Origin: Lysobacter antibioticus
GTDB lineage: Bacteria > Pseudomonadota > Gammaproteobacteria > Xanthomonadales > Xanthomonadaceae
Length of the DNA: 38,734 nucleotides
Direction of reading: 5' to 3'
Assembly: GCF_000731095.1 (NCBI RefSeq)
Contig: NZ_JMTZ01000166.1
Span: forward strand, 1-38,734
Position numbers and translations under genes: made by a program. The stretch's first letter is position 1; the number at the start of each line of letters is the position of its first letter. The notes under the pieces are model-generated. The model saw only the letters and a list, made by a program, of their open reading frames with translations. It had not been told where the DNA came from and did no database searches. Shown piece after piece: positions 1,696 through 28,065 of the stretch.

Positions 1696-1701
1696 GGGTT
1701 C

Positions 1702-11565: not shown

Positions 11566-11592
11566 TCCAGGCTTGAACGCCCTCTGAAACGG

Positions 11593-11620
11593 TGGCTCTC
11601 CCCGCTCTCGGGGAGAGCCA
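11593..11620 (+). terminator. Hairpin after fbp (probable terminator)
   Basis: A perfect 11-bp stem TGGCTCTCCCC/GGGGAGAGCCA with a six-base loop lies 27 bases after the fbp stop codon. There is no T run, as is common in GC-rich genomes, so it may act as a weak terminator or a 3' stabiliser. The rest of the gap to 11835 holds the leader of the next gene. Confidence 0.55.
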
Positions 11621-11835
11621 TCGGGCCGACGGACCCGATTCGCGCGGTACGCTGCGCAGCACCGAATTCCTCACCAAGCTGAACACGTTGCCCCATTGCT
11701 GAATCGGCTTTTTTCCGCTGCCTAAACGCGCATCGTGGGCCAGACCGGTCGTCCGATGACCGGCTTTGCTTCGAGTGTGCGTTAGTAGTAAGACTTGCGG
11801 TAATTGCCGGCGCCTTGCGCCCGCGGGGAAGAACA

Positions 11836-13296
11836 ATGTCGAACAGCACTCGGCGCGACCTGGGGGGTCGTTACGCGACCAACGGCGTGGCATCGCCGAA
11901 ACTTGCGATAGCGCGCGACATCGGAGGCCGCGAACTCCTCTATCTGAGCCCCGGCGGCGCCGGGCGCATGCACGCCCTGGCGGCGTTGCAGACTTTAGGC
12001 TGGACCTTGCGCCGCGCCGTCGATGCGCGCGCCGCGCTGCGTATGTTGCACGCCAACCTGCGCCTGCCGCATGCGGTGTTGATCGATCTGCGCGAAGGTT
12101 TCGATGCGCGCGATCTCGAAGAACTCGGTCCGGCCCTGAGTGCGCACAACGCCGGCTGGATCGCCGGCGTCTCCACGGACCAGATCGAAGACCCGGTCGT
12201 GCGCCGCCTGATTCGCGACTACTGCTACGACTACGTCACCCTGCCCTGCCCCGAGGCCGTGCTGCATACGGTGATCGGCCACGCCTACGGCATGGCCGCG
12301 CTGGCCTGCGGTCACAACGACGATGCCGTATCGAGCTACGTCGACGGCATGGTCGGCGAAAGCGACGCCATGCGCTCGCTGTGCCGGATCTTGAACAAGG
12401 CCGCCTCGACCGACGCGCCGGCCTTCATCGCCGGCGAAACCGGCACCGGCAAGGAACTCGCGGCGATGGCGATCCACCGCCATTCGCGCCGCCAGCGCAA
12501 TCCCTTCGTCGCGATCAACTGCGGCGCGATTCCGCACAACCTGATCGAGTCGGAGCTGTTCGGCTACGAACGCGGCGCCTTCACCGGCGCGCAGCAGCGC
12601 AAGCTCGGCCGCATCGAAATGGCCAACGGCGGCACCTTGTTCCTCGACGAAATCGGCGACCTGCCGCTGGAAAGCCAGACCTCGCTGCTGCGTTTCCTCG
12701 AACAAGGCAGCATCGACCGGCTCGGCGGTCAGGGCCCCACCAAGATCGATGTGCGCATCATCTCCGCGACCCATCACGACCTCGACCTCGCCGTCGCCGA
12801 GGGCCGTTTCCGCAGCGACCTCTATCACCGCCTGTGCGTGCTGCGCCTGCAGCTGCCGCCGCTGCGCGAACGCGGCGGCGACATCGACCTGCTGGCCGAC
12901 TACGCACTGCAGCGTTATTCGCAGGAAAACACCCGCGGCCTGAAGGGGTTTTCGCCGTGCGCGCGCCAGGCCATGCACCGCCACGCCTGGCCGGGCAACG
13001 TGCGCGAATTGATCAACCGCGTGCGCCAGGCCGTGGTGATGGCCGAAGGCCGCTACATCACCGCCGCCGACCTGCGCATCGGCGCGCTCGGCGACGGCCA
13101 GCCGATGACCCTGGAAGAAGCCCGCGACGCCGCCACCCGCGATGCGATCGAACGCGCCCTGCACCGCAACCGCCGCCGCCTCGGCGAATCGGCGCGCGAG
13201 CTCGGCGTATCGCGAGTGACACTGTATCGGCTGATGCAGAAGCTGGGCATGCGCAGCAACGAAGAGGACGTGCCCGAGGAAGCCGAGACCGCCTGA
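11836..13296 (+). CDS. Sigma-54-dependent activator with VpsR-like N-terminal domain
   Basis: A 486-residue bacterial enhancer-binding protein. Residues 30-165 resemble the atypical receiver of VpsR: an aspartate is kept at the expected place (VLID84L), but the acidic pair after strand 1 is replaced by LLYLSPG. The AAA+ domain follows with Walker A GETGTGKE (200-207), the sigma-54-contacting loop GAFTGA (247-252), Walker B GGTLFLDEIGD, and arginine-finger region FRSDLYHRL. A Fis-type helix-turn-helix ends the chain (SARELGVSRVTLYRLMQK). GGGGAAG precedes the ATG. VpsR controls biofilm polysaccharide and matrix genes in Vibrio in response to cyclic-di-GMP. Here it lies about 8 kb from an amyloid-like operon with a sigma-54 promoter, so it is a candidate regulator (inference). 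Confidence 0.9.
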   Translation: MSNSTRRDLGGRYATNGVASPKLAIARDIGGRELLYLSPGGAGRMHALAALQTLGWTLRRAVDARAALRMLHANLRLPHAVLIDLREGFDARDLEELGPALSAHNAGWIAGVSTDQIEDPVVRRLIRDYCYDYVTLPCPEAVLHTVIGHAYGMAALACGHNDDAVSSYVDGMVGESDAMRSLCRILNKAASTDAPAFIAGETGTGKELAAMAIHRHSRRQRNPFVAINCGAIPHNLIESELFGYERGAFTGAQQRKLGRIEMANGGTLFLDEIGDLPLESQTSLLRFLEQGSIDRLGGQGPTKIDVRIISATHHDLDLAVAEGRFRSDLYHRLCVLRLQLPPLRERGGDIDLLADYALQRYSQENTRGLKGFSPCARQAMHRHAWPGNVRELINRVRQAVVMAEGRYITAADLRIGALGDGQPMTLEEARDAATRDAIERALHRNRRRLGESARELGVSRVTLYRLMQKLGMRSNEEDVPEEAETA

Positions 13297-13309
13297 GCGG
13301 CGCCCTCGC

Positions 13310-14455
13310 CTAGCGCTTGGCTTCCTCCAGCGAACGACGCGGCAGGTCGATGGTGAACACGCAGCCGGAACCCGGAAGGTTGCGGACGCTGAGCTCGCCC
13401 TTGTTGGCCAGGATGCTGCGGCGGGCAATCGATAATCCCAATCCCAACCCGCTGGTGTCCGCGCCGGCCTGGGTGAACGGATGGAACAAGCGCTCGGCAT
13501 CGCCCGGCGGCAGCCCGCCGCAACGATCCTCGACATCGATCAGGATGCGGTCGGCGGCGGCATAGGCGTTGGGAACGATCTCGCTGCCGGGATGGGAAAA
13601 CTTGAACGCGTTCTGCAACAGATTGCCCGCCGCCGACAACAGCAGGTCGCGGTCGGCATCGACCGCCAACAGCGGGTCGACGTTCGAGACGGCCAGGCTG
13701 CAGTTCCTGACCTGCGCTTCGAGCGACGCCGACAGTTTGATCTCGGCGATGAAATCGGCCAGCGAAAACAGGTGCTGATGCACCGGCATCCCGGCGGTCA
13801 TGCGCACCTCGGCCAGCGAACGGTCTATCAGGTTGCTCAGGCTCACCAAGGCGCGGTCGAGCACGCCGCCGGTGGCCCCGCCCAGGCCGACGTTGCCTTC
13901 CTTGATGATCGACAGCGCCAGCGTCGCGGTGCAAAGGTGGTTGCGAAGTTCGTGGGCGAAGAAGCCCAGCTTCTCGTTCAGGACGTCGACCTGCTGGCCG
14001 GCGAGAGCGAAATCGTGTTGATAGCCGAATTCGGTCACCGCATTGGCGATCGCATTGTCGAGGCAGCGATTGAGCGTCCTGAACTCGTCGATGTCGATTT
14101 GCATGCCGCGTTCGAACGCCAGGTCGGTGATCGCCTGGCACAGGTCGCCGTAGTCGTGGACGACCGCATCGATGCTGAAACCATGGGCCAGCAATTCCTT
14201 GCCGTGCAGCGCCGCGGTTTCGCCGATTTCCGACAAGGCCGGCTTGCCGCCGCCGGTGGGGCCGGACACCTTGCGGCTGCGCGCGGGCTCGGACGTCTGT
14301 TCGACCCGCAGGGTCTTGATGAGCTGCTCCAGGAACACGGTGATTCCGTGTTCCAGCTCCACCTCCGGCACGCCCGGCGGCGCGCGCCGGGCAACCTTGA
14401 CCCGGCATCGGGCGATCAGCTCGGCGCGGTTCGATGTGAGGAACTCATGCATCAT
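13310..14455 (-). CDS. Soluble histidine kinase with RsbRD-like N-terminal domain
   Basis: A 381-residue protein with no membrane segment. Residues 1-145 resemble the N-terminal helical domain of RsbRD/RsbT-co-antagonist proteins (FLTSNRAELIARCRVKVA, later HGFSIDAVVHDYGDLCQAI). The kinase core starts with FFAHELRNHLCTATLAL (H168), followed by N box LLQNAFKFSH, G1 VEDRCGGLP and G2 GLGLGLSIARR. It ends tail-to-tail, 13 bases from the sigma-54 activator gene, but no receiver gene is adjacent, so the phosphorylation partner is unknown; the neighbouring activator's degenerate receiver is one possibility. Two consecutive ATGs (14455, 14452) are equally possible starts. Confidence 0.85.
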   Translation of the reverse strand: MMHEFLTSNRAELIARCRVKVARRAPPGVPEVELEHGITVFLEQLIKTLRVEQTSEPARSRKVSGPTGGGKPALSEIGETAALHGKELLAHGFSIDAVVHDYGDLCQAITDLAFERGMQIDIDEFRTLNRCLDNAIANAVTEFGYQHDFALAGQQVDVLNEKLGFFAHELRNHLCTATLALSIIKEGNVGLGGATGGVLDRALVSLSNLIDRSLAEVRMTAGMPVHQHLFSLADFIAEIKLSASLEAQVRNCSLAVSNVDPLLAVDADRDLLLSAAGNLLQNAFKFSHPGSEIVPNAYAAADRILIDVEDRCGGLPPGDAERLFHPFTQAGADTSGLGLGLSIARRSILANKGELSVRNLPGSGCVFTIDLPRRSLEEAKR

Positions 14456-14596
14456 TCCGGCACGATACGCGGCCCTTGTTCAGTCTGTTGTGGCGACGGC
14501 CGGCCCGCGGACGGGCGGAACCGTCCACCGGCATCGGATCGGCCGGCGTATCGCCAGACCTCGCGCTGCCGCTGCGCCTGCCGCCCACCGCGGAGC

Positions 14597-14629
14597 ATTA
14601 GATATATTCTTTAAAATCAATTACCTATA
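14597..14629. promoter_or_regulatory. AT-rich promoter-like spot between divergent genes
   Basis: In the 311-base gap between the divergent kinase (ending at 14455) and glutathione S-transferase (14767) genes, this is the only AT-rich stretch in otherwise 65-70% GC DNA (ATTAGATATATTCTTTAAAA and following). Promoters for one or both genes are likely here. I cannot assign clean -35 and -10 hexamers. Nothing else is recognisable in the gap. Confidence 0.35.
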
Positions 14630-14766
14630 GCGGATTCCGGGGCGGCGCCATCGATTCCGGCGACTGTCGCCTATGCGCATCGCGCCGGCCGCGGCGGCCC
14701 GGCCGTGTCGATTCGCCGCCTTGCCGTTCGTCGGATGGATATCACCGCAAACGACGGAGCACCGCT

Positions 14767-15420
14767 ATGAGGATCTATTGGATCAAGGCGCAGGCACCGC
14801 GACGGGTACTGGCGCTGGTCAAACACCTCGGCATCGACGCCGAGCTGATCGAGAAAGACCTGATGGCCGGCGAACTCAAGGCCGCCGACTACGCCGCCCT
14901 CAACCCCAACTGCAAGGCGCCGACGCTGGTCGATGGCGACCGGGTGCTGTGGGAATCCTCGGCGATCATGGCCTACCTGTGCATCAAGCACGGCTCGGAC
15001 ATGTGGCCGGCGCACTCGCCCGACGAACAGATCGACGTGCTGCGCTGGCTGTCGTGGAACGACTGCCACTGGGCGAACGCGGTCTCGCCGTTCTACTTCG
15101 AACACGTGGTCAAGAGCACGTTCGGACTCGGTCCGCCGGACCTGGAGCTGTTGAAGGCGGAAACCGCGGGACTGATCCGGTTCGCACGCGTGCTCGACGC
15201 CCACCTTGCCGATCGCCGCTACGTGGCTTGCGGCCGGCTGACCATCGCCGACTTCCAACTCGCCTCGATGGCGGCCTACTGGCGCGAATCGGACATGCCG
15301 CTCGATGCGTTCGCGAACATCCTGCGCTGGCTCGACGACCTGATGCGCATCCCGGCCTGGGCCGCCCCCTGGCCGAGCGAAACCCGGCCGCTGACTGAGG
15401 TCGCGGTTGCGGCGGGCTGA
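14767..15420 (+). CDS. Glutathione S-transferase family protein
   Basis: A 217-residue protein with a thioredoxin-like N-terminal domain: MRIYWIKAQAPRRVLALVKH, the cis-proline motif KAPTLVDGD, and the glutathione-contacting WESSAIMAYL. An all-helical C-terminal domain follows with the N-capping box LTIADFQLAS. It would conjugate or reduce substrates with glutathione in the cytoplasm; the substrate cannot be read. The first-strand catalytic position carries Ser/Cys/Tyr in most classes, but here reads IKAQAPRR with none of these, so catalysis may be atypical. GGAG lies nine bases before the ATG. Confidence 0.9.
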   Translation: MRIYWIKAQAPRRVLALVKHLGIDAELIEKDLMAGELKAADYAALNPNCKAPTLVDGDRVLWESSAIMAYLCIKHGSDMWPAHSPDEQIDVLRWLSWNDCHWANAVSPFYFEHVVKSTFGLGPPDLELLKAETAGLIRFARVLDAHLADRRYVACGRLTIADFQLASMAAYWRESDMPLDAFANILRWLDDLMRIPAWAAPWPSETRPLTEVAVAAG

Positions 15421-15477
15421 GCCCCGCATCGCCATCCGTGAGCGCCGAGTGCGTCGGTTGCGCGCTCTTTCTCACAT

Positions 15478-15553
15478 CGCCCCCTTTGGCAAAGGGGGCG
15501 AGCGCCCGGCAGAGCGCGAGGTCCGATGCGGCCTTCGGCGCGGGGGATTTGCT
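15478..15553. repeat. Variant half of the MITE-like element
   Basis: A perfect 10-bp hairpin CGCCCCCTTT/AAAGGGGGCG (15478-15500) is followed by about 40 bases and then GGGGGATTTGC (to about 15553). Read on the minus strand this equals the expanded left arm of the copy at 22824, with an insertion inside the arm. It lies 58 bases after the glutathione S-transferase stop and may double as its terminator. Confidence 0.6.
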
Positions 15554-15637
15554 GTTCGGCGCCATGCATTGCAAGCAACGCAAGCAGTTCCCTGCCCCCG
15601 ATGCGGAGAAGGAACAGCAAAAGCAAGAGCGCCGGAC

Positions 15638-15673
15638 AAAAAATCGGGACGGAGGCCTCACACCTCCGCCCCG
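15638..15673 (-). terminator. Intrinsic terminator of the amyloid-like operon
   Basis: On the minus strand an 11-position stem (15673-15663 with 15655-15645, one A-C mismatch, 7-base loop) is followed by C-G-A-T then six T (plus-strand A at 15638-15643). It lies about 165 bases after the stop codon of the last gene of the operon and points the right way. Confidence 0.7.
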
Positions 15674-15774
15674 GCGCGAGCGTCGTCGAAAGCGACGCCT
15701 CTCCCGCAGAAAACCTGCCTGATGTTCGGCCCCATGCTCCCCTGGCGCAGTTCCCCTGTTGCAATGCCTGCGTT

Positions 15775-15841
15775 GCGACTCCCCTGGTGCGACTCCCCTG
15801 GTGCGACTCCCCTGGTGCGACTCCCCGGTACGACTCCCCTA
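15775..15841. repeat. 14-bp tandem repeat at the end of the operon's last gene
   Basis: Three perfect copies of GCGACTCCCCTGGT (15775-15788, 15789-15802, 15803-15816) are followed by a degenerate copy (15817-15830) and a partial one that includes the TAG stop codon of the outer-membrane gene (15839-15841). The array thus begins at the stop codon and extends into the 3' region. Gap 15421-15838 otherwise holds the terminator and variant repeat above, and no gene. Confidence 0.85.
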
Positions 15842-17164
15842 GAACGAGCGCGAAGTGCGCATCGCGAATACGAAGTTCGGCGCGTCCGGCGTCAGGCCCG
15901 CGGCGATCTGGCCGTTGAAGGTCCACCCCGACGGCAGCACATAACTGGCACCGATGTTGAGCGTGGTGCTGTTGCTGGAACTGCCCGGCACGCGCCGCTT
16001 CGGCCCGCCGGGCGCGGTGGTGTGGGTGGCGCCGGTGGCGGCGGTGGCGACGCTGAAACTGACCGCGGAACGATCGTTGAGGGCGATGGCCAGGCCACCG
16101 CTCAGCAAGATGGTGTTGCCCAGTTCGACCCGCGCCGGCGAAACCTGCTCGGCCACCGGCGAGATGTCGTCGAAGTCCGTGGGCTGGTTGTAGGTGTAGC
16201 CGATGTTGCCGAACAGGATCACCGGATCGTAGGTGCGCAAAGCCGAGACATTGAACGTCGCGCTCCAGATACCCGAACCGGTCGGCAGGTTCTCCGGAAT
16301 ATTGAGGTTGTTGTTGTCGTCGTCGGGTTGGATCAACTTGAGGCCGAACGGGTCGCGCCCTGTCGGCGCGCGTACCCGCAGGCTGGTGACGATGTCGGGC
16401 CAGCGCTGCGACTCCTTGACCCACTGGTAGTAGGCCGCAACGCTGGCATCGCCCATGCCTTGCGAACGCATGTTGACCTCGCTGACCACGCTGGAGGCGC
16501 CGCCGGCGCCGCCGCTGACGAATCGCGAATCGCGGTACACGTAGGGCAGGCTGGCTTCGACGCTGAAGCGGTCGGTGAAACCGTAGCGGCCGGTGAGGTC
16601 GACGGTGGCGACGGTGGCCTTGGTCTGGTCCAGGTTGATGCTGCCGAGGAAGATCGCATCCAGCGCCAGGAACCCGCTCAGCGCGAGCTGGCGGCGGTCG
16701 TAGTAGCTGTAACTCAGGCCGGTATCGAGGGTGAACTTGCGCTCGAACAAGGGCGCGTGTTCGCGCACCACCAGGGCTTTTTCCCGCTCGCGGCGTTGCG
16801 CGTCTTCCTCGCGTTGGGTCTGGCCGACCTGGACCGGTCCGTCGCGCTCCTGGGCGTCGTTGGCGGCGGTCGTCGAGGCCTTGCGCCGCGCTTCCTCCGA
16901 AGCCTCGCGGGCGATCTTGCTGGCGTTGTCCTGGTAGCCGGCATCGCCCGGTGCGTCGAGCCCGCGCCCGCGTTGGCTCAGTTCGAGTTCGTCGACCTGA
17001 TTGCGCAGCCGCTCGATCTCGGCGCGCTGCGAAGCCAGCTCGCGGCTCATGTCGAGCATTCGTTGGTGCAGGGATACGGTGTCGGCGCCGTCTTCGGCGG
17101 CGAACGCCTGTGCGCTCAGGACGAGCGACAGGGCCAGGGTCAACGGAGTCAGCACGGCACGCAT
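15839..17164 (-). CDS. fapF: FapF-like outer-membrane amyloid exporter
   Basis: A 441-residue protein with signal peptide MRAVLTPLTLALSLVLSAQA (cut near AFA|AED). Residues 30-65 form a heptad-rich coiled coil (LHQRMLDMSRELASQRAEIE and on). A charged hydrophilic linker rich in E, R, K and Q covers about 70-135. From about residue 140 to the end, alternating amphipathic strands form a beta-barrel, closing with a C-terminal phenylalanine (RTSRSF) typical for BAM-dependent insertion. A trimerising coiled coil, helical plug region and C-terminal barrel is the architecture of Pseudomonas FapF, which exports Fap amyloid subunits. It is last in the operon, as fapF is. By barrel alone it could be called a generic transporter; the context decides. 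Confidence 0.8.
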   Translation of the reverse strand: MRAVLTPLTLALSLVLSAQAFAAEDGADTVSLHQRMLDMSRELASQRAEIERLRNQVDELELSQRGRGLDAPGDAGYQDNASKIAREASEEARRKASTTAANDAQERDGPVQVGQTQREEDAQRREREKALVVREHAPLFERKFTLDTGLSYSYYDRRQLALSGFLALDAIFLGSINLDQTKATVATVDLTGRYGFTDRFSVEASLPYVYRDSRFVSGGAGGASSVVSEVNMRSQGMGDASVAAYYQWVKESQRWPDIVTSLRVRAPTGRDPFGLKLIQPDDDNNNLNIPENLPTGSGIWSATFNVSALRTYDPVILFGNIGYTYNQPTDFDDISPVAEQVSPARVELGNTILLSGGLAIALNDRSAVSFSVATAATGATHTTAPGGPKRRVPGSSSNSTTLNIGASYVLPSGWTFNGQIAAGLTPDAPNFVFAMRTSRSF

Positions 17165-17200
17165 GGTCTCGACATCCTTAGCAAGAGTGAAACGTGCCGC

Positions 17201-17944
17201 TCAGCGCGGCAACGAACGCAGACTTTCCAGTGCCTGCAGCAGGCCGAGCTGGCCGCCCTGTTGCGGCGTGATCGCCGAGGTGACCAGCTGCAGTTGCATG
17301 CGGTTGCTGCCGTTGAGGTCGTTGCCGGCGATGCGGCCGAGCTGGACGATGCCGCCCTGCGCGCCGGCATCGAGGTGTTGCTGCAAGGACGCTCCGGGGC
17401 CGGCGACGCCCAGCTGCACGCCGCCGTCGAGGAAGGTCACCTGCGCGGTCATCGGCCCGGCGCCGGCCTGGCTCTGGGTCTGGCCGTTGAAGCCGCTGGC
17501 GTCGACCTGTTCGACGAACTGGATCGCAGTCAGATTGGACAAACGGTTGCGGTCGCCGGCGATCTGCGCGATCTGGCCGATGCCCTGGACCTGCAACGCC
17601 TCGGCGCCGCTCGCGCTGGCGTTGTCCGCGAGCGGCGCGTCCAGGCCGGCTTCGGCCTGGCTGCGCGCATCGACCTGCACGACATAGCCGCTGCCGGCGC
17701 GCTCGATCAGCAGCGAACCGCTGGCGACCGCGGCGCCTTGTTGGGCGGTGGCCAGGCTCGACACCAGGTCCACGCGCAGACCGACCAACATCTGCGCACC
17801 GAAGTACCTGCCGCAGACGGTCGCGAGCGTGGCCTCGTCGACCAGTTCGGCTTTCAGAGGGGGCAGGGCGACCGCGGGTTGGACCGCGGCCGCCGCTGCC
17901 ACGAGGGCCGTGAACAGGGCACAGGGGAGTGATGGACGGTTCAT
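17201..17944 (-). CDS. fapE: FapE-like secreted protein
   Basis: A 247-residue protein with a signal peptide (MNRPSLPCALFTALVAAAAA, cut after VALA or PAVA). The mature part opens with LVDEATLATVCGRYFGAQM, resembling the leader-like (L/V)xxxRGRY start of FapE proteins, and continues as small, polar, glycine- and glutamine-rich strands (QGIGQIAQIAGDRNRLSNLT, GNDLNGSNRMQLQL). FapE is a minor secreted fibre component or chaperone in Pseudomonas. The gene is 48 bases after the C39-like protease gene and 36 before the barrel gene, the same place as fapE. The assignment leans on position as well as this weak resemblance. Confidence 0.65.
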   Translation of the reverse strand: MNRPSLPCALFTALVAAAAAVQPAVALPPLKAELVDEATLATVCGRYFGAQMLVGLRVDLVSSLATAQQGAAVASGSLLIERAGSGYVVQVDARSQAEAGLDAPLADNASASGAEALQVQGIGQIAQIAGDRNRLSNLTAIQFVEQVDASGFNGQTQSQAGAGPMTAQVTFLDGGVQLGVAGPGASLQQHLDAGAQGGIVQLGRIAGNDLNGSNRMQLQLVTSAITPQQGGQLGLLQALESLRSLPR

Positions 17945-17992
17945 CGGGCACCTCGAACGCTTTGCGTGCGCACCGGATCGATGCGCGGACAT

Positions 17993-18721
17993 TCAGAACA
18001 AATCGGTAATCACCAGGCCGAACTCGACCACCCGCGGCGGCGCGGTCGCGCGATCGAGCGCATCCACGCGCCGCAACAGGGCCGGCGAACTGCGATGGCT
18101 GACCAGATAGGAATCGGCGCGCATCGGCCGGTCGCCGACCACCGCCAGCACGATGCCGTTCCAGCCGCGGACGAAATCGCCTTCGAGCATCACCCGATGG
18201 CCGAGCGCGGGATCGGCGACGAACACGCGTCCGCCGGCAGCGCCCTTGACCACGACGAAATGGCGATAACCCTTGAGGTCGAGCAGGGCGATCACCGGCA
18301 TCTGCAAGCGGTACAAGGCATCGGCCTCGATGCGGAACCCATGCGCGCGCAGACCGACGCTTTCGACGTAACGCTTCATGTCGAGCATCGAGAAGCCGTT
18401 GCGCACGACTTCGTTGGGATCCACGCCGACCATCATCTTCTTGATCAGTTCCGGCTCGCTCACGTCCATGCCGTAGCCGTAATGCAACAGGCTGGCCAGC
18501 GCGGCCGAGCCGCAACTGAAGTCGTAGCGCTGCTGGAGCAGGTCGCGATAGCGCAGGTCGCGCATCGTGCGCATGGTCTTGACCACCGGCACCGCGCCGG
18601 TGCCGGCCAGCCGGGTCAGGTCGACGGTGCTGCTGCGTTCGACCGGCGCTTGCGTGTGGCCGGCGCCGCACCACGTTGCGGCACCCAGGCAGACCGTCAT
18701 CCAGAAACCCAGCGAACGCAT
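17993..18721 (-). CDS. fapD: FapD-like C39-family cysteine protease
   Basis: A 242-residue protein with an N-terminal signal (MRSLGFWMTVCLGAATWCGA). The papain-like C39 fold is clear: Q64 for the oxyanion hole and C70 in QQRYDFSCGSAALASLL, then H154 in YRHFVVVKG and D170 in VFVADPALG. The spacing Q-x5-C matches C39 peptidases. Unlike bacteriocin exporters it has no ABC transporter part, as in FapD, a periplasmic protease needed for Fap export. A substrate with a double-glycine leader is not evident in the neighbours. GGCGGT lies upstream of the ATG. It follows the second repeat gene after a strong hairpin. Confidence 0.85.
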   Translation of the reverse strand: MRSLGFWMTVCLGAATWCGAGHTQAPVERSSTVDLTRLAGTGAVPVVKTMRTMRDLRYRDLLQQRYDFSCGSAALASLLHYGYGMDVSEPELIKKMMVGVDPNEVVRNGFSMLDMKRYVESVGLRAHGFRIEADALYRLQMPVIALLDLKGYRHFVVVKGAAGGRVFVADPALGHRVMLEGDFVRGWNGIVLAVVGDRPMRADSYLVSHRSSPALLRRVDALDRATAPPRVVEFGLVITDLF

Positions 18722-18778
18722 GTCGATACCGCCCTGAGATCGTAGTCGGCCGTCGCGGCCGGCATTGGAGGAAGGACA

Positions 18779-18810
18779 TCCGCGGCGACCCTGATGACGG
18801 TCGCCGCGGA
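18779..18810 (-). other. Hairpin between the second repeat gene and the protease gene
   Basis: A perfect 12-bp stem (18779-18790 with 18799-18810, 8-base loop) lies 18 bases after the stop codon of the repeat protein gene and 57 bases before the protease start. There is no T run. It probably acts as a partial terminator or 3' mRNA stabiliser that makes subunit mRNA more abundant than downstream export genes (inference). Confidence 0.6.
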
Positions 18811-18828
18811 TGGACGCAACAACGACGG

Positions 18829-19647
18829 TCAGTCGCCGCAATTCGCGCCGCAGGTCGGCGGCGGCGGGGGTGGTGCGCAGGCGCCGCAGGACGCGGTCGC
18901 GATCGACAGGCCGTTGTGCTGCAGGTTGCCGACGCCGGAGGCGACGTTGACGCCGATGTTGCCCTGCGCACCGGACAGGGCGTTGCCGTCGAGCGTGGCG
19001 AACAGATCCAGGCTCATGCGGCGGCCTTCGCTGTCGAGCAGGTTCATCGTCGACATCTGCTCGCTGTCGGAGGTCGCGATGGCGAGCCGGCCGGAGCTGT
19101 TGACCGACGCGGCCATGCCGTTGCCCTGAACGTTGCCGACGCCCGCGGCGACGTTGACGCCGATGTTGCCCTTGGCATTCGACAATGCGTTGCCGTCGAG
19201 CGTGGCGCTGTAGTAGGTGTGGTCGGTGTTGGTGGTGGCGTAGTTGTCGGTCGAGCTCTGGCTGCCGAACACCATCGCCGACGCGAACACCTTCTCGCCG
19301 TCGACCGCCGACAGGGCGGTGTCGTTGGCCTGAACGTTGCCGACGCCGGCGGCGACATTGGCGCCGATGTTGCCTTGCGCATCCGACAGCGCGTCGCCGC
19401 CGAGATGGGCGTCGTGATCGCCGTCGCCGAGCGACCAGTTGCTGACCGTGGTCTGGTCCTGATCGACGGTGGCGGCGGATTCGGATGCGACGCGGATCTT
19501 GCCCTTGACCCGGACCCGACCCGATACGTCGATGTTGTTGCTTACGCGGGTGCTGCTGTAGATCTCGGCGTCGTCCCCCTCGGCCAAGGCCGGCAAGGCG
19601 AGGCTCGAGACCAGGGCAAGCGCCAGCAGGCGGTGGTGAAGTTTCAT
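18829..19647 (-). CDS. fapC: FapC/FapB-like amyloid repeat protein (272 aa)
   Basis: Signal peptide 1-22 (MKLHHRLLALALVSSLALPA, LA|EG). Three imperfect 31-residue repeats lie at 83-113, 151-181 and 220-250, each centred on GNIG(A/V)NVA(A/S)GVGN(V/L)Q and preceded by (D/N)ALS(D/N/G)A. They are separated by two non-repetitive linkers. The C-terminus has CGAC (C254, C257), a run of six prolines, then CGANC (C266, C270). Three GN-x-GVNVAAG repeats, two linkers and a C-terminal CxxC are the plan of Pseudomonas FapB and FapC, which form extracellular amyloid fibres in biofilm. The proline-rich second cysteine pair is unusual. The sequence is about three-quarters identical to the upstream paralogue. 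It stands third from the C39 side as fapC does; which paralogue is the major subunit cannot be told. Confidence 0.82.
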   Translation of the reverse strand: MKLHHRLLALALVSSLALPALAEGDDAEIYSSTRVSNNIDVSGRVRVKGKIRVASESAATVDQDQTTVSNWSLGDGDHDAHLGGDALSDAQGNIGANVAAGVGNVQANDTALSAVDGEKVFASAMVFGSQSSTDNYATTNTDHTYYSATLDGNALSNAKGNIGVNVAAGVGNVQGNGMAASVNSSGRLAIATSDSEQMSTMNLLDSEGRRMSLDLFATLDGNALSGAQGNIGVNVASGVGNLQHNGLSIATASCGACAPPPPPPTCGANCGD

Positions 19648-19683
19648 GTCCAGTCTCCGTAGGCTTCGAAACAGCGCGCGAAA

Positions 19684-19707
19684 CGGCCGCGGCCTGCGCC
19701 GCGGCCG
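19684..19707 (-). other. Hairpin between the two repeat genes
   Basis: A perfect 10-bp GC-only stem (19684-19693 with 19698-19707, loop CTGC) lies nine bases after the stop codon of the first main repeat gene. A second hairpin follows the second repeat gene in the same relative place, so the two look like a designed feature of subunit mRNAs. Confidence 0.6.
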
Positions 19708-19715
19708 CGCGCGGA

Positions 19716-20483
19716 TCAGTCGCAGCTACCGCAGGACGCAGTGGCGATCGACAGGCCGTTGTGCTGCAGGTTGCCGACGCCGGCGGCGACGTTGGCGCCG
19801 ATGTTGCCCTGCGCACCCGACAACGCGTTGCCCGCGAGGGTCGCGAAGGTGTCGAGATCGCAAGCGGCCGCCAGGGTGTTCAACCAGGCGTCCTGCTCGC
19901 TGTCGGAGGCGGCCTTGGCGATCGTGCCCGAGCTGTTGACCGATGCGGCCATGGCATTGCTCTGCGCGTTGCCGACGCCCGCGGTCACGTTCACCCCGAT
20001 GTTGCCCTTGGCATTGGACAGCGCGTCGCCGTTGAGGGTGGCGCGGTAATCGGTGTCCTGCTGCGACGAGTAGGCGAAGTTGAAGCTCGATTCCTGGTTG
20101 TTGAAGGTCATCGCCGAAGCGAACACCTTTTCGCCGTCGACCGCGGACAACGCGGTGTCATTGGCCTGGGCGTTGCCGACGCCGGCGGCGACGTTCGCAC
20201 CGATGTTGCCCTGTGCGTCCGACAAGGCGCTGCCGCCGAGGTGGGCGGTGTGGTCGCCGTCGCCGAGCGACTCGTTGGCCAGGGTGGTCTGATCCTGGTC
20301 GACGGTGGCGGCGGATTCGGATGCGACGCGGATTTTGCCCTTGACCCAGACGCGGCCGTGCACGCCGACGCTGTTGCTGACGCGGGTGGAGCTGTAGATG
20401 TCCGCGTCGTCGCCTTCGGCATAAGCTGGCGCAGCCACAGCCACGCCGAGTGCGAGGGCAAGCAGGGTGAAATGAACTTTCAT
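19716..20483 (-). CDS. fapB: FapB/FapC-like amyloid repeat protein (255 aa)
   Basis: Signal peptide 1-22 (MKVHFTLLALALGVAVAAPA, YA|EG). Repeats at 83-113, 151-181 and 217-247 carry GNIGANVAAGVGNAQ-type cores. The chain ends TASCGSCD with CxxC at C251 and C254, plus one extra cysteine at C208. Residues 22-125 are nearly the same as in the downstream paralogue, and long runs of identical bases (around 20297-20340 against 19459-19500) show a fairly recent duplication or gene conversion. The linkers differ most (FNNQESSFNFAYSSQQ is Asn/Gln/Phe/Ser rich, typical of amyloid linkers). A strong CAGGAGAG precedes the ATG. By order it matches fapB. Confidence 0.82.
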   Translation of the reverse strand: MKVHFTLLALALGVAVAAPAYAEGDDADIYSSTRVSNSVGVHGRVWVKGKIRVASESAATVDQDQTTLANESLGDGDHTAHLGGSALSDAQGNIGANVAAGVGNAQANDTALSAVDGEKVFASAMTFNNQESSFNFAYSSQQDTDYRATLNGDALSNAKGNIGVNVTAGVGNAQSNAMAASVNSSGTIAKAASDSEQDAWLNTLAAACDLDTFATLAGNALSGAQGNIGANVAAGVGNLQHNGLSIATASCGSCD

Positions 20484-20533
20484 GATCTCTCTCCTGGTGG
20501 TGGTTGATATCGCCTTGCGTCTGCCGCTTTTTT

Positions 20534-21178
20534 TTAAAAGCCCCCGGGCAGTTGGAGCACGATGGCGTTGGCCGACGCGTTGCCGACCCCCGCCGTCTGA
20601 TTGATTTGCAGCACGCCTTCGCCGCCGCGGAAGGCGTCGCCGGCGATCGTCGCTTCGCGCATACGCGGTGCGTCGGCGGCGGCATCGTTTTGGGTTTCGC
20701 CGGCGATGGCGGCCAGCGCGGCATCGTCGAGCGCGCCGTCGCCCAGGCCGGCCAGCGCGCTGCCGGTCGCGAGCACGAACAGATTCGCCTGGGCATTGCC
20801 GGCGCCGGCGCTCTGGTTGAGCGAGAGCAGCCCGCGACTGTCGGCGAAGGCACCGGCACCGATGCGCGCGGAGGCGTCGCGCGATTCGTTGCGCGCATCG
20901 GACGCGGCCTGGTTCGCCTGCGCCGATGCGAGCGCCGTGCCCGCGGGCGCGGCCGCGATCGCCGCGAGGTTGCTCTGCACGTTGCCCACGCCCGCGGTCT
21001 GGTTGATCGCGGCGCGGCCATCGAGCGAACGGCCGCTGTCGGCACCGATGCGGGCATGGTCGGCACCGTTCGCAGACGGGACTTCGCTCGCCTCGGTGTC
21101 GGTCGACAGGGCGGTTGCGAACAGACACACCGCCAGCCACAGCGGCGCCAGGCGCAGCGGACGCAGACGCGCGCTCAT
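20534..21178 (-). CDS. Secreted repeat protein at the fapA position
   Basis: A 214-residue protein with a signal peptide (about 1-30, cut near TEA|SEV). Three repeats are visible near 53-75, 114-137 and 186-210 with the core (I/L)NQ(T/S)AG(V/A)GN and an asparagine four residues later (INQTAGVGNVQSN, LNQSAGAGNAQAN, INQTAGVGNASAN). The AGVGN-x-x-x-N half is shared with the two larger repeat proteins, but INQT replaces GVNVA, so it is a divergent class. It lacks CxxC. Its ATG overlaps the stop of the upstream gene by four bases (21175-21178). FapA is proposed to guard FapC against early assembly; homology to FapA is inferred from position and not shown by sequence. Confidence 0.7.
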   Translation of the reverse strand: MSARLRPLRLAPLWLAVCLFATALSTDTEASEVPSANGADHARIGADSGRSLDGRAAINQTAGVGNVQSNLAAIAAAPAGTALASAQANQAASDARNESRDASARIGAGAFADSRGLLSLNQSAGAGNAQANLFVLATGSALAGLGDGALDDAALAAIAGETQNDAAADAPRMREATIAGDAFRGGEGVLQINQTAGVGNASANAIVLQLPGGF

Positions 21179-21717
21179 CGGCCGTTCCCCTGAGGCGCCA
21201 AGGCCTGCATCACGCTGCCGGTGACCAGGTCGGCGATGCCGGCGGTCGCATTCGTCACCGCTCCGCCGACGCTGGCGGTCGGGCCCATCGGCGCGGTCGC
21301 CGACGGACCGAGCAAGCCGTTGTTGCCCGAGGCGCCGAGCGATTCGGTCGGCACCAGCAGGCCGGTCAGGGCCCCGGTCGCCGCGCTCGGGCTGAGCCCG
21401 CTGGAACCGTGCTGGCCGAGCTCGGCGTCGCCGATCAGGGGCGCCAGCGAACGGTCCAGGGTGCCGTGGAAGACCTGGCCGGGGAAGGTCGTCGCCTCGG
21501 TGCGGATCGGGTTCTCCTGCGCGGGCAGGGCGCGGTAGGCGATACGCGGGTGGACGGTGCGGGCGATGACCACGGTCGGGTCTTCGCTGGCCGGACCGGC
21601 CTGCTGACCTTGGGCTGCACCGGCGAACGTGACGAACATCGTGGCGAGGCCCAACGCCGCCGCGCGCGCCGCCGCCGGCTGCGAGGTCTGGGAAAAGCGG
21701 CAGGAGATCGCGGACAT
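21175..21717 (-). CDS. Secreted protein of unknown function, first gene of the operon
   Basis: A 180-residue protein. After a hydrophilic start (MSAISCRFSQTSQPAAARAA) comes a hydrophobic core LGLATMFVTFAGAAQG, consistent with a long signal peptide cut before QQAGP. The mature part holds VIARTVHPRIAYRALP, a glycine/serine/alanine-rich middle, and a C-terminal amphipathic segment VGGAVTNATAGIADLVTGSV. I do not recognise the family, and Pseudomonas fap operons have no counterpart before fapA that I know of. It is translationally coupled to the next gene and is the first gene after the sigma-54 promoter. The start at 21717 has GGAGC upstream; the frame is open further but enters the promoter. Confidence 0.65.
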   Translation of the reverse strand: MSAISCRFSQTSQPAAARAAALGLATMFVTFAGAAQGQQAGPASEDPTVVIARTVHPRIAYRALPAQENPIRTEATTFPGQVFHGTLDRSLAPLIGDAELGQHGSSGLSPSAATGALTGLLVPTESLGASGNNGLLGPSATAPMGPTASVGGAVTNATAGIADLVTGSVMQALAPQGNGR

Positions 21718-21786
21718 GGCTCGGGCTCCAAGACGACTAGGGGGTCGACGGCCGCGTCGCTTCAGCGATACGGGTGATGGACCTAG

Positions 21787-21802
21787 TGCGAGAGTCGTGC
21801 CA
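21787..21802 (-). promoter_or_regulatory. Sigma-54 (-24/-12) promoter of the amyloid-like operon
   Basis: The minus strand reads TGGCACGACTCTCGCA, against the consensus TGGCACG-N4-TTGC(A/T): one mismatch, with the essential GG and GC at the right ten-base spacing. Transcription would start near 21776, leaving a leader of about 60 bases before the ATG at 21717. Upstream, 21808-21840 is markedly AT-rich, in keeping with an activator- or IHF-binding zone. Confidence 0.72.
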
Positions 21803-22068
21803 ACGACATAAGAAATTGAATTTATTAGAAATTTATTCAGCCAGTAGCGGCGTGACCGGCGTAGCTGAACGAAAACGTTACAAGCGCGGAACGCGTCTTG
21901 CCGAGGCGGGCGACCGTCCCGAGCGCGGCGAAATCGCGCAATGGCTTGATTCAGTGGCCGTATAGGCTCGCGAGGAAGATGTGTAAACAGGCACACACTG
22001 GGCGTTGCCTTTTTGCAACGCGCCTCGCGTGCGAGGATGGCCGCCTTCCCGCGCTCGCTTCCCAAGCC
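21803..22068. other. Regulatory gap between the divergent operon and oxygenase gene
   Basis: This gap has the AT-rich stretch 21808-21840 beside the sigma-54 promoter and, on the other side, a 7-bp hairpin GCGTTGC/GCAACGC with a CTTTTT loop (22002-22008 with 22015-22021) in the presumed leader of the oxygenase gene. No gene is seen. Activator sites for the sigma-54 promoter are expected in the AT-rich half. Confidence 0.4.
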
Positions 22069-22785
22069 ATGTCATCGACGATCGACGCCCCGGACGATTT
22101 CATCGAGGTCTATCCCGAGGCCCTGACGCGCGAGCAATGCGCGGACCTGCTGCGCCGTTTCGATGCCAGCCGCGAGAGCGAGCCGGGCCGGGTCGGCGGC
22201 GGCGTCATGCCCGACCTCAAGGACAGCCGCGACCTGACCATCACCGGGCGCGAAGGTTGGAAGGACATCGAGATCGCCTTGAACCTGGCGGTGTTCCGCG
22301 GCCTGCTGAGCTATCTGCGCCGCTACCCGCACACGATGATCGCGCCGCTGATGCTGGAAGCGCCGTCGGCCGACGGCAAGCGCCACCGTCTCACTCCCGA
22401 ACGCATGGCCGAGATGGACGACAACGCGCTGGCGCCGATCGCCCAGACCGTGTTCCGCCCCGGATCGATCAACCTGCAGCGCTACACCGCCGATCGCGGC
22501 GGTTATCCGTACTGGCATTGCGAGCTGTACCCGCGCGACCCGGGCGCCGAAACCCTGCACCGCCACGTGCTGTGGACGATCTACCTCAACGACGGCTTCG
22601 AGGAAGGCGAGACCGAGTTCCTGTATCAGCGCCGCAAGATCGTCCCGCGCGCCGGCGACCTGCTGATCGCACCGGCCGCGTTCACCCACACCCATCGCGG
22701 CAATCGGCCCAAGGGCGGCGACAAATACATCGCGACCAGCTGGATTCTGTTCCAGCGCGCAGAGCAGTTGTTCGGCGGGCGCTGA
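22069..22785 (+). CDS. 2OG-Fe(II) oxygenase family protein
   Basis: A 238-residue protein of the prolyl-hydroxylase-like superfamily. The double-stranded beta-helix core shows iron ligands H150 and E152 in YWHCELYP (HxE in place of the usual HxD), a distal histidine H207 or H209 in FTHTHRG, and a 2-oxoglutarate-binding basic residue nearby (R210 or the lysine in GGDKYIATSW). Members hydroxylate protein or small-molecule substrates using Fe(II) and 2-oxoglutarate. The ATG at 22069 was chosen because the frame upstream lacks family features. It is divergent from the amyloid-like operon; a functional link is not shown. Confidence 0.85.
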   Translation: MSSTIDAPDDFIEVYPEALTREQCADLLRRFDASRESEPGRVGGGVMPDLKDSRDLTITGREGWKDIEIALNLAVFRGLLSYLRRYPHTMIAPLMLEAPSADGKRHRLTPERMAEMDDNALAPIAQTVFRPGSINLQRYTADRGGYPYWHCELYPRDPGAETLHRHVLWTIYLNDGFEEGETEFLYQRRKIVPRAGDLLIAPAAFTHTHRGNRPKGGDKYIATSWILFQRAEQLFGGR

Positions 22786-22823
22786 GGCTCCAGGCGCGCG
22801 GTTCGGTTGGCTAGCGGGCGAAG

Positions 22824-22976
22824 GCAAATCCCCGGCGCAGCCGTTACCCAGGCACCCGTTCTACGTACGCGCCAGCCCCCTCAACCAAAGGGGCGAGTTG
22901 ACGCGGCCATCGCTCGTATAAGTTCGAATCTCAGCGCGAGTTCCCCCCTTGGAAAAGGGGCAGGGGGGATTTGCTG
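22824..22976. repeat. MITE-like inverted pair, copy 3 (variant left arm)
   Basis: The right arm 22941-22976 (TTCCCCCCTTGGAAAAGGGG then CAGGGGGGATTTGCT) matches the other copies. The left arm starts GCAAATCCCC at 22824 but carries an insertion before CCCCCTCAACCAAAGGGGCG (to about 22897), like the half-copy at 15478. It fills the gap between the convergent oxygenase and response regulator genes. Confidence 0.7.
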
Positions 22977-22998
22977 TTAGCCGTTAACCCGCCGAACC

Positions 22999-23433
22999 TC
23001 ACGGATTGCGCGGGTGGTTCAACACCAGCCAGTACAGGCCGACTTGTTTGACCGCCCATACGAACTGCTCGAAATCCACCGGCTTCTGGATGTAGCTGTT
23101 GACCCCGAGCGCGTAGCTCGCCTCGACGTCGAAGGGCTCGGTGCTGGTGGTCAGCACCACCACCGGCAGCGTGCGGGTGGGCTCGTGGGCGCGGATCGCC
23201 TGCAACACTTCGCGGCCGTCGACCTTCGGTAGATTGAGGTCGAGCAGGACGATCGAGGGCAGGTCGTTGGGGTCGCGATCGGAATAACGGCCACGGGCGA
23301 ACAGGTAATCCAGCGCCTCGGCGCCGTCGCCCATCACCACCAGCCTGTTGGCGATCTTGGCCTCGTCGAAGGCGAGCCGGGTCAGCTCGACATCGTCGGG
23401 ATTGTCTTCGACCAGCAGGATTTCCTTATGCAT
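22999..23433 (-). CDS. Single-domain response regulator (Rcp1-like)
   Basis: A 144-residue receiver with no output domain. Acidic pocket E9-D10, phospho-acceptor D65 in IVLLDLNLPKVDG, the threonine switch VVVLTTS and the lysine in YIQKPVDFEQF are all present. Such stand-alone receivers serve phytochrome-like kinases and relays. Its start overlaps the end of the upstream kinase gene by eight bases, so the two are a coupled pair. CAGGAT precedes the ATG. Confidence 0.93.
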   Translation of the reverse strand: MHKEILLVEDNPDDVELTRLAFDEAKIANRLVVMGDGAEALDYLFARGRYSDRDPNDLPSIVLLDLNLPKVDGREVLQAIRAHEPTRTLPVVVLTTSTEPFDVEASYALGVNSYIQKPVDFEQFVWAVKQVGLYWLVLNHPRNP

Positions 23434-24616
23434 CTGGGTTTTCCTCGCCTGTCGCGGCGACAGGCAATTCCACTATGAAAGTACTGCCCGCACCGGGCTG
23501 CGAATGAGCGCGCAGCTCGCCGCGGTGGCGTTCGACCACGCGGCGCGCGATCGCCAGGCCCAAACCGTGACCGCCGCCCTGGTCCGGCCCGTGCAGGCGC
23601 TGGAAGGGCTCGAACAGCTTGTGAGCATATCGCATGTCGAAACCGGCCCCGTGGTCGCGGATGGTCAGCAGCAGACGGCCCGCGACGGTCTCGCCGCTGA
23701 CCTCGATGCGCACCGGTTCGACCTGGCCCTCGCGCTCGCACGAAAACTTCCATGCGTTGTGCATGAGCTGGTTCAACATCAGCTTGAGCAAGCGTTCGTC
23801 GCCTTCGACCTGCAGGCCGGGCTGGACCGAAACTTCGCCGCGATGGCGCGGATCGGCGTCCTGCAGCTCGGCGCCGACCCAGTCGGCGAGCAGGCTCAGG
23901 TCGACCGGCGCGACCCGCATCTCGGCGCGGGTCACGTGCGACAACTCGGTCAGCGCCGCGAGCAGACTGGTCATGCGCGAGGCCGCGGCGCGGATGCGCC
24001 CCAGGTAATCGCGATCGGTCTCGTTCAAGCGTTCGATCGCGCGTTCGCTGAGCAGGGCGGAGAAACTTTCGATCGAGCGCAGCGGCGCGCGCAGGTCGTG
24101 GGCGACCGCGTCGGCGAACAGCTGCAACTGGCGGTTGGAGGCGTCGAGCGCGGCGCCGCGTTCCTCGATGCGGGCGCTCAGGGCGATGCCGGCCTCGCGC
24201 TCGCCGCGGATGTCGCGCATGTGCGAGATGAAGTACTGCGGCGCGCCGGACTCGTCGCGCATCACCGCGACGTTGAGCTGCACCCAGACCTCGCTGCCGT
24301 CGCGATGCACGTAGCGCTTGTGCTCGTCGACCGAGGCCAGGCTGCCGTTGACCAACGCGGTGACCAGGTTGTTGCTGATCGCCAGATCGTCGGGGTGGGT
24401 CACTTCGCTGTAGTGATGGCCGCGCAACTCGTCTTCGCGATAGCCCAGCATCGCGCACAGCGCCGGATTGATTTCCAGCCAGATGCCCTCGATCGAAACG
24501 ATGGCCATGCCGATGTTCGACGCGGCCATGGCCTGCCGGAACCGATCGTCGCCCATCTTCGACGCCACCGCAGCGGTGGCGTGGTCGGCGGTGGTCGTGG
24601 CGCGCGGTAGGCTCAT
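23426..24616 (-). CDS. PAS-domain sensor histidine kinase
   Basis: A 396-residue soluble kinase. A PAS domain with PAC motif fills about 23-140 (MAASNIGMAIVSIEGIWLEI, then YVHRDGSEVWVQLNVAVMRD). After a short coiled linker comes HisKA with H173 in ADAVAHDLRAPLRSIESF. The ATPase domain has N box LNQLMHNAWKFS, G1 RDHGAGFDM and G2 GGGHGLGLAIARRVVE. The layout is that of Cph1-type kinases without the phytochrome part. It partners the single-domain receiver that overlaps its 3' end. The start at 24616 excludes an upstream cysteine- and proline-rich open frame without domain features. The signal bound by the PAS domain is unknown. Confidence 0.92.
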   Translation of the reverse strand: MSLPRATTTADHATAAVASKMGDDRFRQAMAASNIGMAIVSIEGIWLEINPALCAMLGYREDELRGHHYSEVTHPDDLAISNNLVTALVNGSLASVDEHKRYVHRDGSEVWVQLNVAVMRDESGAPQYFISHMRDIRGEREAGIALSARIEERGAALDASNRQLQLFADAVAHDLRAPLRSIESFSALLSERAIERLNETDRDYLGRIRAAASRMTSLLAALTELSHVTRAEMRVAPVDLSLLADWVGAELQDADPRHRGEVSVQPGLQVEGDERLLKLMLNQLMHNAWKFSCEREGQVEPVRIEVSGETVAGRLLLTIRDHGAGFDMRYAHKLFEPFQRLHGPDQGGGHGLGLAIARRVVERHRGELRAHSQPGAGSTFIVELPVAATGEENPDA

Positions 24617-24738
24617 CGGTGCAGGGGCAAGGGTCTTCGGCGGATTATGTGACCGGGGAGTGTATCCGCCCGGCTCGTGACGGCACGGTGGACGGTCGCA
24701 TACGGCGCCGACACAGCCAAGTCGAGCACAATGCCGGC

Positions 24739-27080: not shown

Positions 27081-27105
27081 GGGTGGGCGTCGCGGATCGC
27101 CTCGG

Positions 27106-27660: not shown

Positions 27661-28065
27661 CGACGCCAAGACGAAGATACGGGCCGAATCCCCCATCTGC
27701 CACATGCGATTCGTTACCCGCCCGCAATACCGTCTCATCATCGAAGGCATCGCGCACGCGCACGAACACGCGCGAACCCAGACACATGCCACGCGCACCG
27801 CACGCGACACGCCACACACTCTGACGCGCATCTCAATTCGCATACGCGATACGCGTCGCCGCTGCTGCGCAGGTAGGGGGTCGTTACCCGAGCGCGTTCC
27901 CATCTATGGGGAGGGGCCGAAGAAGACGAGCCGCCGCCTGCGACGAATCGTCTTCGGGGCATACACGACCTCTGCCGCAATGCACGACACCGCTTCGCGA
28001 CTGCGTTCGCGCGGCGGCTCTTGGCTGGTCTTTTCTTATTTCGATCTACGACTCGGAGAAACCGC
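27661..28065. other. Leader and gap before the M4 protease gene
   Basis: No gene is supported. An imperfect hairpin spans 27917-27957 (CCGAAGAAGACGA with TCGTCTTCGG, three-base bulge) about 110 bases before the protease start and could be a leader structure. Short open frames here lack normal codon use. Confidence 0.35.

What the first reader, a model, noticed from the sequence alone, without database searches (positions are those of the whole stretch)
15839..21717. A divergent Fap functional-amyloid operon in a probable Lysobacter
Seven co-directional minus-strand genes encode, in order: a small secreted protein, a secreted INQTAGVGN repeat protein, two three-repeat GNIGxNVAAGVGN proteins with C-terminal CxxC, a C39-like protease with Q64/C70/H154/D170, a FapE-like protein, and a coiled-coil plus beta-barrel outer-membrane protein. 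Repeat type, CxxC, lone C39 peptidase, exporter architecture and order all match Pseudomonas fapABCDEF. The extra first gene, the divergent repeats at the fapA position and the proline-spaced second cysteine pair in one subunit are not in the Pseudomonas plan. Each alone is weak evidence; seven in the right order are strong.
Basis: partly seen in the sequence, partly recalled or inferred. Interest (0 to 1): 0.88.

Follow-up and report, generated by a model that had tools for sequence, protein, structure and literature searches.

The report
Lysobacter Fap amyloid operon, doubled subunit
This stretch of a Lysobacter-type genome carries a complete, divergent version of the Fap operon that Pseudomonas uses to build amyloid fibres for biofilms, with the main fibre gene duplicated, one copy given an extra cysteine tail, and a likely control gene and promoter nearby.

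Summary
Gene 1 is fapA, gene 2 fapB, genes 3 and 4 are two tandem fapC paralogues, then fapD, fapE, fapF. Nothing is extra at the front; the extra gene is the second fapC.

Comparison with 80 other operons of the order shows two Fap lineages: "short" (31 loci with the window; FapC 253-299 aa, 1-4 copies) and "long" (50 loci; one FapC, 332-621 aa). In short-lineage arrays of two or more copies the last FapC carries a proline-spaced second set of cysteines in 22 of 24; none of 29 other copies does.

Nearby lie a VpsR-type sigma-54 activator (11836-13296), placed like BrfA of P. fluorescens, a -24/-12 promoter (21787-21802) and an enhancer-like dyad at conserved distances. In two genera both lineages occupy the same chromosomal site, suggesting replacement in place.

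Fap is known, also in Xanthomonadales; this is a new variant of a known kind. Fibre formation, FapC division of labour and activator binding are untested.

The parts
21175..21717 (-). fapA (180 aa), probable periplasmic chaperone
   Evidence: NF058617 FapA 13.4 bits E 0.07 alone; 13 of 20 aligned short-lineage proteins hit FapA at E up to 1, best 4.9e-6; profile match to long-lineage FapA E 1e-11 over 21 columns only
20534..21178 (-). fapB (214 aa), probable nucleator, three INQxAGxGN-type repeats
   Evidence: NF058557 FapB E 2.9e-26
19716..20483 (-). fapC1 (255 aa), first major subunit copy; three repeats, C-terminal CGSC
   Evidence: NF058558 FapC E 1.4e-27; in the group of 14 Lysobacter first copies in the FapC tree (SH-aLRT 86)
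18829..19647 (-). fapC2 (272 aa), last major subunit copy; three repeats, C-terminal CGAC + PPPPPP + CGANC cap
   Evidence: NF058558 FapC E 2.1e-29; solved FapC 9u4u E 1e-19; in the group of 14 Lysobacter last copies (84); cap count
17993..18721 (-). fapD (242 aa), C39-type cysteine protease without transporter
   Evidence: NF058616 FapD E 3.9e-60; Pfam Peptidase_C39 1.8e-21; catalytic residues conserved
17201..17944 (-). fapE (247 aa)
   Evidence: NF058559 FapE E 2e-10; lies between fapD and fapF
15839..17164 (-). fapF (441 aa), outer-membrane exporter with N-terminal coiled-coil-like region and beta-barrel
   Evidence: NF058560 FapF E 1.7e-98; solved FapF 5o65 E 1.3e-74 over residues 141-436
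21787..21802 (-). -24/-12 (sigma-54) promoter-like site TGGCACGACTCTCGCA, 69 bp before the fapA start
   Evidence: 28 of 29 short and 44 of 50 long loci have a site at 9 or more of 11 positions (1.1 and 3.3 expected)
22004..22019 (.). enhancer-like dyad GTTGC-N6-GCAAC, perfect, 201 bp upstream of the promoter element
   Evidence: 25 of 29 short loci, 0.91 expected
21877..21892 (.). degenerate dyad GTTCC-N6-GTAAC at the place of the proximal dyad of other genomes
   Evidence: read by eye from the sequence and the alignment; two mismatches, so not counted
11836..13296 (+). sigma-54 activator (VpsR domain, AAA+ with GAFTGA, Fis-type helix-turn-helix), positional counterpart of Pseudomonas BrfA
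   Evidence: Pfam VpsR 3.5e-18, Sigma54_activat 8.9e-68, HTH_8 1.2e-4; a homologue lies convergent and 3' of fapF in 26 of 30 other short and 43 of 50 long loci
22069..22785 (+). 2OG-Fe(II) oxygenase, divergent neighbour that marks the upstream side of the locus
   Evidence: Pfam 7.5e-8; recurrent upstream neighbour

Best explanation
The locus encodes a complete Fap functional-amyloid system of a lineage in which the main fibre gene is repeated in tandem. Proposed working: the VpsR-type activator at 11836-13296, by analogy with BrfA responding to cyclic di-GMP, binds upstream dyads and switches on the sigma-54 promoter of fapA. FapA to FapF enter the periplasm; FapA holds the subunits soluble; FapD cleaves one or more Fap components; FapB, FapC1, FapC2 and FapE leave through FapF. 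FapB nucleates a fibre built mainly of the three-repeat FapC proteins. FapC2 probably joins the same fibre, and its proline-spaced second cysteine pair stands off the core and could link fibrils to each other or to the surface. Shown here: homology of the genes, order, catalytic residues, conservation of promoter, dyads and neighbours, and the fixed place of the cap. Inferred: all biochemical steps, cyclic di-GMP sensing, dyad binding by the activator, and the role of the cap.
For: Family profiles for FapB, C, C, D, E, F; FapA through relatives; solved FapF and FapC by sequence; order A-B-C(n)-D-E-F without exception in 81 operons (L117, cut by a contig end, lacks fapA; B and E were told apart partly by position); FapD catalytic residues; promoter; dyads; activator next to the operon and its tree agreeing with the operon lineages; in P. 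fluorescens PF07 a -24/-12 fapA promoter and the adjacent reverse gene brfA, whose deletion lowers fap expression (PMC9207406, passages), and BrfA reported to sense c-di-GMP (PMC13101488, passages); last FapC capped in 22 of 24 arrays, other copies 0 of 29.
Against: No protein reaches its NCBIfam equivalog cut-off (FapF 330 of 700 bits, FapD 203 of 330), and FapA alone is not significant. No structure model could be made. No expression or fibre data exist here. The activator gene persists in 6 of 6 fap-less genomes of the genus, so it may have other targets. The exact dyad is at background genome-wide (17 sites against 21 control sites) and is rare in the long lineage (9 of 50), so its binding partner is unproven. 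Two of 24 arrays lack the cap (L105, L112).
Confidence: 0.9

Rival explanations
1. The genes are an unrelated adhesin or pilus export system (for example the FilB/FilC type) that resembles Fap by convergence of repeats.
For: FapD and FapF also hit FilB (5.1e-31) and FilC (8.7e-11); PMC3792158 states that FapD and FapF belong to larger families.
Against: FapD and FapF models score far better (3.9e-60, 1.7e-98), FapB, FapC and FapE models also hit, and solved FapC and FapF match by sequence.
Confidence: 0.02
2. The two FapC copies are redundant: the duplication only raises dosage, and the cap has no role of its own.
For: Outside Lysobacter the copies cluster mostly by genus, and the 4-copy array L110 is mosaic (in 25-codon windows C2 and C3 are 100% identical at DNA level from about codon 100 on, C3 and C4 over the first 75 codons), as expected of repeated duplication or gene conversion; 7 of 31 short loci have one copy.
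Against: The cap sits on the last copy in 22 of 24 arrays and on 0 of 29 other copies although the bodies are mixed; in Lysobacter first and last copies are separate groups (86 and 84).
Confidence: 0.4
3. The two lineages at one site stem from an ancestral tandem of both operons with differential loss, not from replacement by foreign DNA.
For: L138 holds activators of both lineages side by side; no donor was identified.
Against: In the listed matches I saw no genome with both FapC types (that list was cut off); apart from genus codes g4 and g65 the long loci showed none of the five tested window neighbours in their fetched stretches.
Confidence: 0.3

Closest known systems
Pseudomonas fapABCDEF (UK4, PAO1, F1; PMC3684753 passages, PMC3792158 parts 1-3 of 5)
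   Same: Gene order, FapB/FapC repeat types, lone C39 protease, FapF exporter, C-terminal CxxC of FapC (present in P. aeruginosa and P. fluorescens, absent in P. putida)
   Different: fapC duplicated in tandem; proline-spaced second Cys pair on the last copy; all scores below NCBIfam equivalog cut-offs; FapA barely recognisable
BrfA/RpoN control of fap in P. fluorescens PF07 (PMC9207406, PMC13101488, passages)
   Same: -24/-12 promoter before fapA; reverse-oriented sigma-54 activator after fapF
   Different: BrfA sequence was not compared here; the window has a histidine kinase and a GST-like gene between fapF and the activator; c-di-GMP sensing untested
Fap of Stenotrophomonas and Rhodanobacter (named in PMC3792158)
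   Same: Same order of bacteria; Fap already reported there
Multi-repeat FapC of Acidithiobacillus and Vibrio (PMC3792158)
   Same: Another way to enlarge the amount of FapC repeat
   Different: There repeats expand within one protein; here whole three-repeat genes are repeated

Membership tests
Fap functional amyloid system | Cluster of a fapBC-repeat gene with at least three other genes matching the Fap models (criterion of PMC12392863) | tested here: met
   Three repeat genes plus FapD, FapE, FapF, and FapA by relatives; tested with NCBIfam models, not the paper's own
Fap functional amyloid system | Order fapABCDEF | tested here: met
   A-B-C1-C2-D-E-F, that is, with a duplicated fapC
Fap functional amyloid system | FapC with three imperfect repeats | tested here: met
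   Three repeat-motif matches in each copy; solved FapC E 1e-19 for the second copy
Fap functional amyloid system | FapF exporter barrel | tested here: met
   5o65 E 1.3e-74 over 141-436; by sequence, not by model
Fap functional amyloid system | Extracellular amyloid fibres containing FapC | not testable with these tools
   needs the strain
NCBIfam Fap equivalogs (a naming threshold, not a definition of the system) | Score over the curated cut-off | tested here: not met
   0 of 7 proteins pass; 3 of 297 family genomes pass for FapC
BrfA-type regulator | Sigma-54 activator next to and reverse to fapA-F | tested here: met
   in the window two genes intervene
BrfA-type regulator | Sequence orthology to PF07 BrfA | not tested
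BrfA-type regulator | Senses c-di-GMP and binds the fapA upstream region | not testable with these tools
   a VpsR domain is present

The most novel reading that the evidence does not exclude
In this lineage Fap is a mixed-subunit fibre: an array of plain FapC proteins plus one dedicated, positionally fixed 'capped' FapC whose proline arm and second cysteine pair cross-link or anchor fibrils. The operon with its own activator, promoter and enhancers behaves as a cassette, and two deeply different versions of it replace each other at one chromosomal site.
Probability: 0.35. Interest if true: 0.7.

Novelty: new variant of a known kind. Interest (0 to 1): 0.5.

Why it matters
Fap fibres are described as built from one major subunit, and two Fap surveys call horizontal transfer infrequent or rare (PMC3792158, PMC12392863). 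A natural two-subunit version with a tail fixed on one copy gives a direct way to ask what the cysteine end of FapC does. Two genera that hold either of two Fap lineages at the same site offer a test case for exchange of a whole amyloid-plus-regulator unit. Promoter, dyads and activator make expression testable in a soil genus known for biocontrol (recalled, not looked up); the papers listed by my searches (lists capped) show no report of Fap in Lysobacter.

Tried and rejected
Structure prediction of FapC2 was attempted and not obtained (polls in between), so the fold evidence is by sequence only and fold search was not used. Rfam on 11000-25000: no match. A loose dyad scan was near background (short 29 found, 24.7 expected; long 47 found, 42.2 expected) and was replaced by the strict scan. 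Genome-wide search for the dyad as a regulon signal: background. First operon annotations merged neighbouring frames in this high-GC DNA and were replaced. The flank comparisons probably mix shadow frames and were used only as leads. Hypothesis 'extra first gene' rejected. Hypothesis 'activator dedicated to fap' weakened: it persists without fap.

Of 80 family genomes with a FapC match operons were fetched for all but G161. Start codons were chosen by a home-made signal-peptide score, so lengths, above all of long FapC, are approximate. 'Short' and 'long' were assigned from FapC scores before the trees were built. The sigma-54 consensus and the GAFTGA motif are recalled; PMC9207406 supports the GG and GC elements.
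Full report
WHAT IS THERE. Seven minus-strand genes fill 15839-21717, with gaps of -4 to 107 bp. Against NCBIfam they read, in order: FapA (E 0.07, alone not significant), FapB (2.9e-26), FapC (1.4e-27), FapC (2.1e-29), FapD (3.9e-60), FapE (2e-10), FapF (1.7e-98); none reaches its curated cut-off. By sequence the barrel part of the last protein matches solved FapF (5o65, E 1.3e-74) and the fourth protein matches solved FapC (9u4u, E 1e-19).

FAPA. Alone the 180-residue protein gives 13.4 bits. Of 20 aligned short-lineage first-gene proteins, window included, 13 hit the FapA chaperone model at E up to 1, best 4.9e-6; of 20 long-lineage ones, 20 hit it, best 3.1e-12. These sets were 20 of 30 and 20 of 50 available. 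The two profiles match at E 1e-11, but over 21 columns only. Position and these hits together make fapA the best name.

WHERE IT OCCURS. In the genus, 13 of 19 other genomes examined have FapC matches and those 13 have two copies each. In 297 genomes of the family, 80 have FapC matches, in 11 of 54 genera. I annotated 81 operons, window included: 31 'short' (FapC 253-299 aa) and 50 'long' (332-621 aa; 49 from the family, one from another family of the order). Order A-B-C(n)-D-E-F holds without exception, one operon lacking fapA at a contig end (B and E were partly assigned by position). The FapD tree puts the 31 short rows on one side of a branch (SH-aLRT 94) and the 50 long rows on one side (98); the FapF tree does so for 30 short (99) and 49 long rows (99); both place two Burkholderiales loci next to the short set. 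These are quick trees with long branches. A careful FapF tree of 37 rows keeps the short set (100/100) but needs two changes for the long set.

TANDEM FAPC AND THE CAP. Short loci have one copy in 7, two in 20, three in 3, four in 1. In 22 of 24 arrays with two or more copies the last FapC, next to fapD, continues past the CxxC with a proline-containing spacer and further cysteines; none of the 29 other copies does; the exceptions are L105 and L112. Long FapC has no cysteine after residue 30 in 49 of 50. In Lysobacter the 14 first and the 14 last copies form separate groups (86 and 84), but in other genera copies group mostly by genus, and L110 shows blocks of DNA identity between neighbours. 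The bodies thus seem to be repeatedly duplicated or converted while the tail stays at the last place, which hints at a role for it. The CxxC of FapC lies outside the modelled core and was suggested to act in polymerisation and inter-fibre stabilisation (PMC6173800, passages); the cap's role is my inference.

CONTROL. A gene at 11836-13296 encodes a VpsR domain, a sigma-54 activation domain with GAFTGA and a Fis-type helix-turn-helix. A homologue lies convergent and 3' of fapF in 26 of 30 other short and 43 of 50 long loci, and upstream in 6 more long loci; in four short loci (L103, L106, L109, L114) it was not found within the stretch, and L065 ends at a contig end. A -24/-12 element with at least 9 of 11 consensus positions lies within 350 bp of fapA in 28 of 29 short and 44 of 50 long loci, against 1.1 and 3.3 expected from shuffles; of 10 class-level loci only 4. 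A dyad GTTGC-N6-GCAAC (at most one mismatch) occurs in 25 of 29 short loci against 0.91 expected, at 74-75 and 187-222 bp before the promoter element; spacing 6 is special (spacings 2-10 otherwise 0-1 short loci, spacing 11 six); long loci show it in 9 of 50, 1.59 expected. Related genomes are not independent, so these counts overstate the evidence. In the window the distal dyad is perfect (22004-22019) and the proximal one degenerate. Genome-wide the dyad is at background (17 against 21 control). In P. fluorescens PF07 the same layout exists: an RpoN-type fapA promoter and brfA, the adjacent reverse gene (PMC9207406, passages); BrfA is reported to sense c-di-GMP (PMC13101488, passages). I did not compare sequences with BrfA.

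LOSS AND EXCHANGE AT ONE SITE. In G005 the aligned flanks (94.7% identical on the fapA side, 87.8% on the other) jump from window 15696 to 21943: operon and promoter are absent, activator and distal dyad remain. All 6 fap-less genomes of the genus keep the activator; in the 4 whose locus I fetched no Fap match over 60 residues was found. In genus code g4, 2 short and 6 long operons share the upstream oxygenase, response regulator and kinase; a seventh long locus, L057, ends too early to tell. The oxygenase tree without L107 puts these 8 on one side of a branch (91/85, not starred), while FapF rejects the genus as one group (log-likelihood loss 440, p 2e-57). Against this: with L107 included the oxygenase tree did not group the g4 rows, the response-regulator tree does not group them either, and the oxygenase data do not reject all short loci as one group (p 0.149). 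In genus code g65, L140 (short) is collinear with L138 and L139 (long) on both sides, in blocks of 1.1 to 6.0 kb at 80-87% DNA identity, around operons of different lineages; L138 carries, beside its long-lineage activator, a second activator of the short lineage. Activators follow their operons: long one side of a branch (100), short with the orphan (97) (quick tree). Replacement in place, or an ancestral double locus with differential loss, both fit; I favour the first. This differs from the view in PMC3792158 (parts 1-3 of 5 read) and PMC12392863 (section 6 read in full, otherwise passages) that transfer is infrequent or rare.

KNOWN AND NEW. Fap in Stenotrophomonas and Rhodanobacter is in print (PMC3792158). 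PMC12392863 reports 94.5% of 1172 clusters with two fapBC genes; the section read does not describe the remaining 5.5%, which may include clusters like this one. In the listings (most of them capped at the top 10-20 papers) I saw no description of tandem fapC, of the cap, or of Fap in Lysobacter; subscription papers are mostly outside that library.

LIMITS.

Noticed in passing
L134 6475-6687 (G005) against window 15696-21943: A close relative lacks the whole fap operon and its promoter but keeps activator and distal dyad; about 210 bp stand in its place.
   Followed up: partly
L138 5873-7138 and 7434-8726: Two sigma-54 activators of different Fap lineages side by side next to a long-lineage operon.
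   Followed up: yes
window 13310-15420: A histidine kinase and a GST-like gene lie between fapF and the activator; close homologues were found only in L134, not in the other stretches searched.
   Followed up: partly
window 15774-15840: 14-bp tandem repeat, 4.9 copies, directly at the fapF stop.
   Followed up: no
window 27095-27656: 127-bp tandem repeat, 4.4 copies.
   Followed up: no
window 1700-1818: Perfect 7-bp repeat TCGGGAA, 17 copies, directly after a sigma-70-type factor gene.
   Followed up: no
L115 (G203): FapF appears in two separate frames; cause (mutation or assembly) not examined.
   Followed up: no
L105 C3: Last FapC of a three-copy array lacks the cap although its close relative L104 has a long proline tract there.
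   Followed up: partly
window 28021-29946: Thermolysin-type (M4) metalloprotease gene.
   Followed up: no
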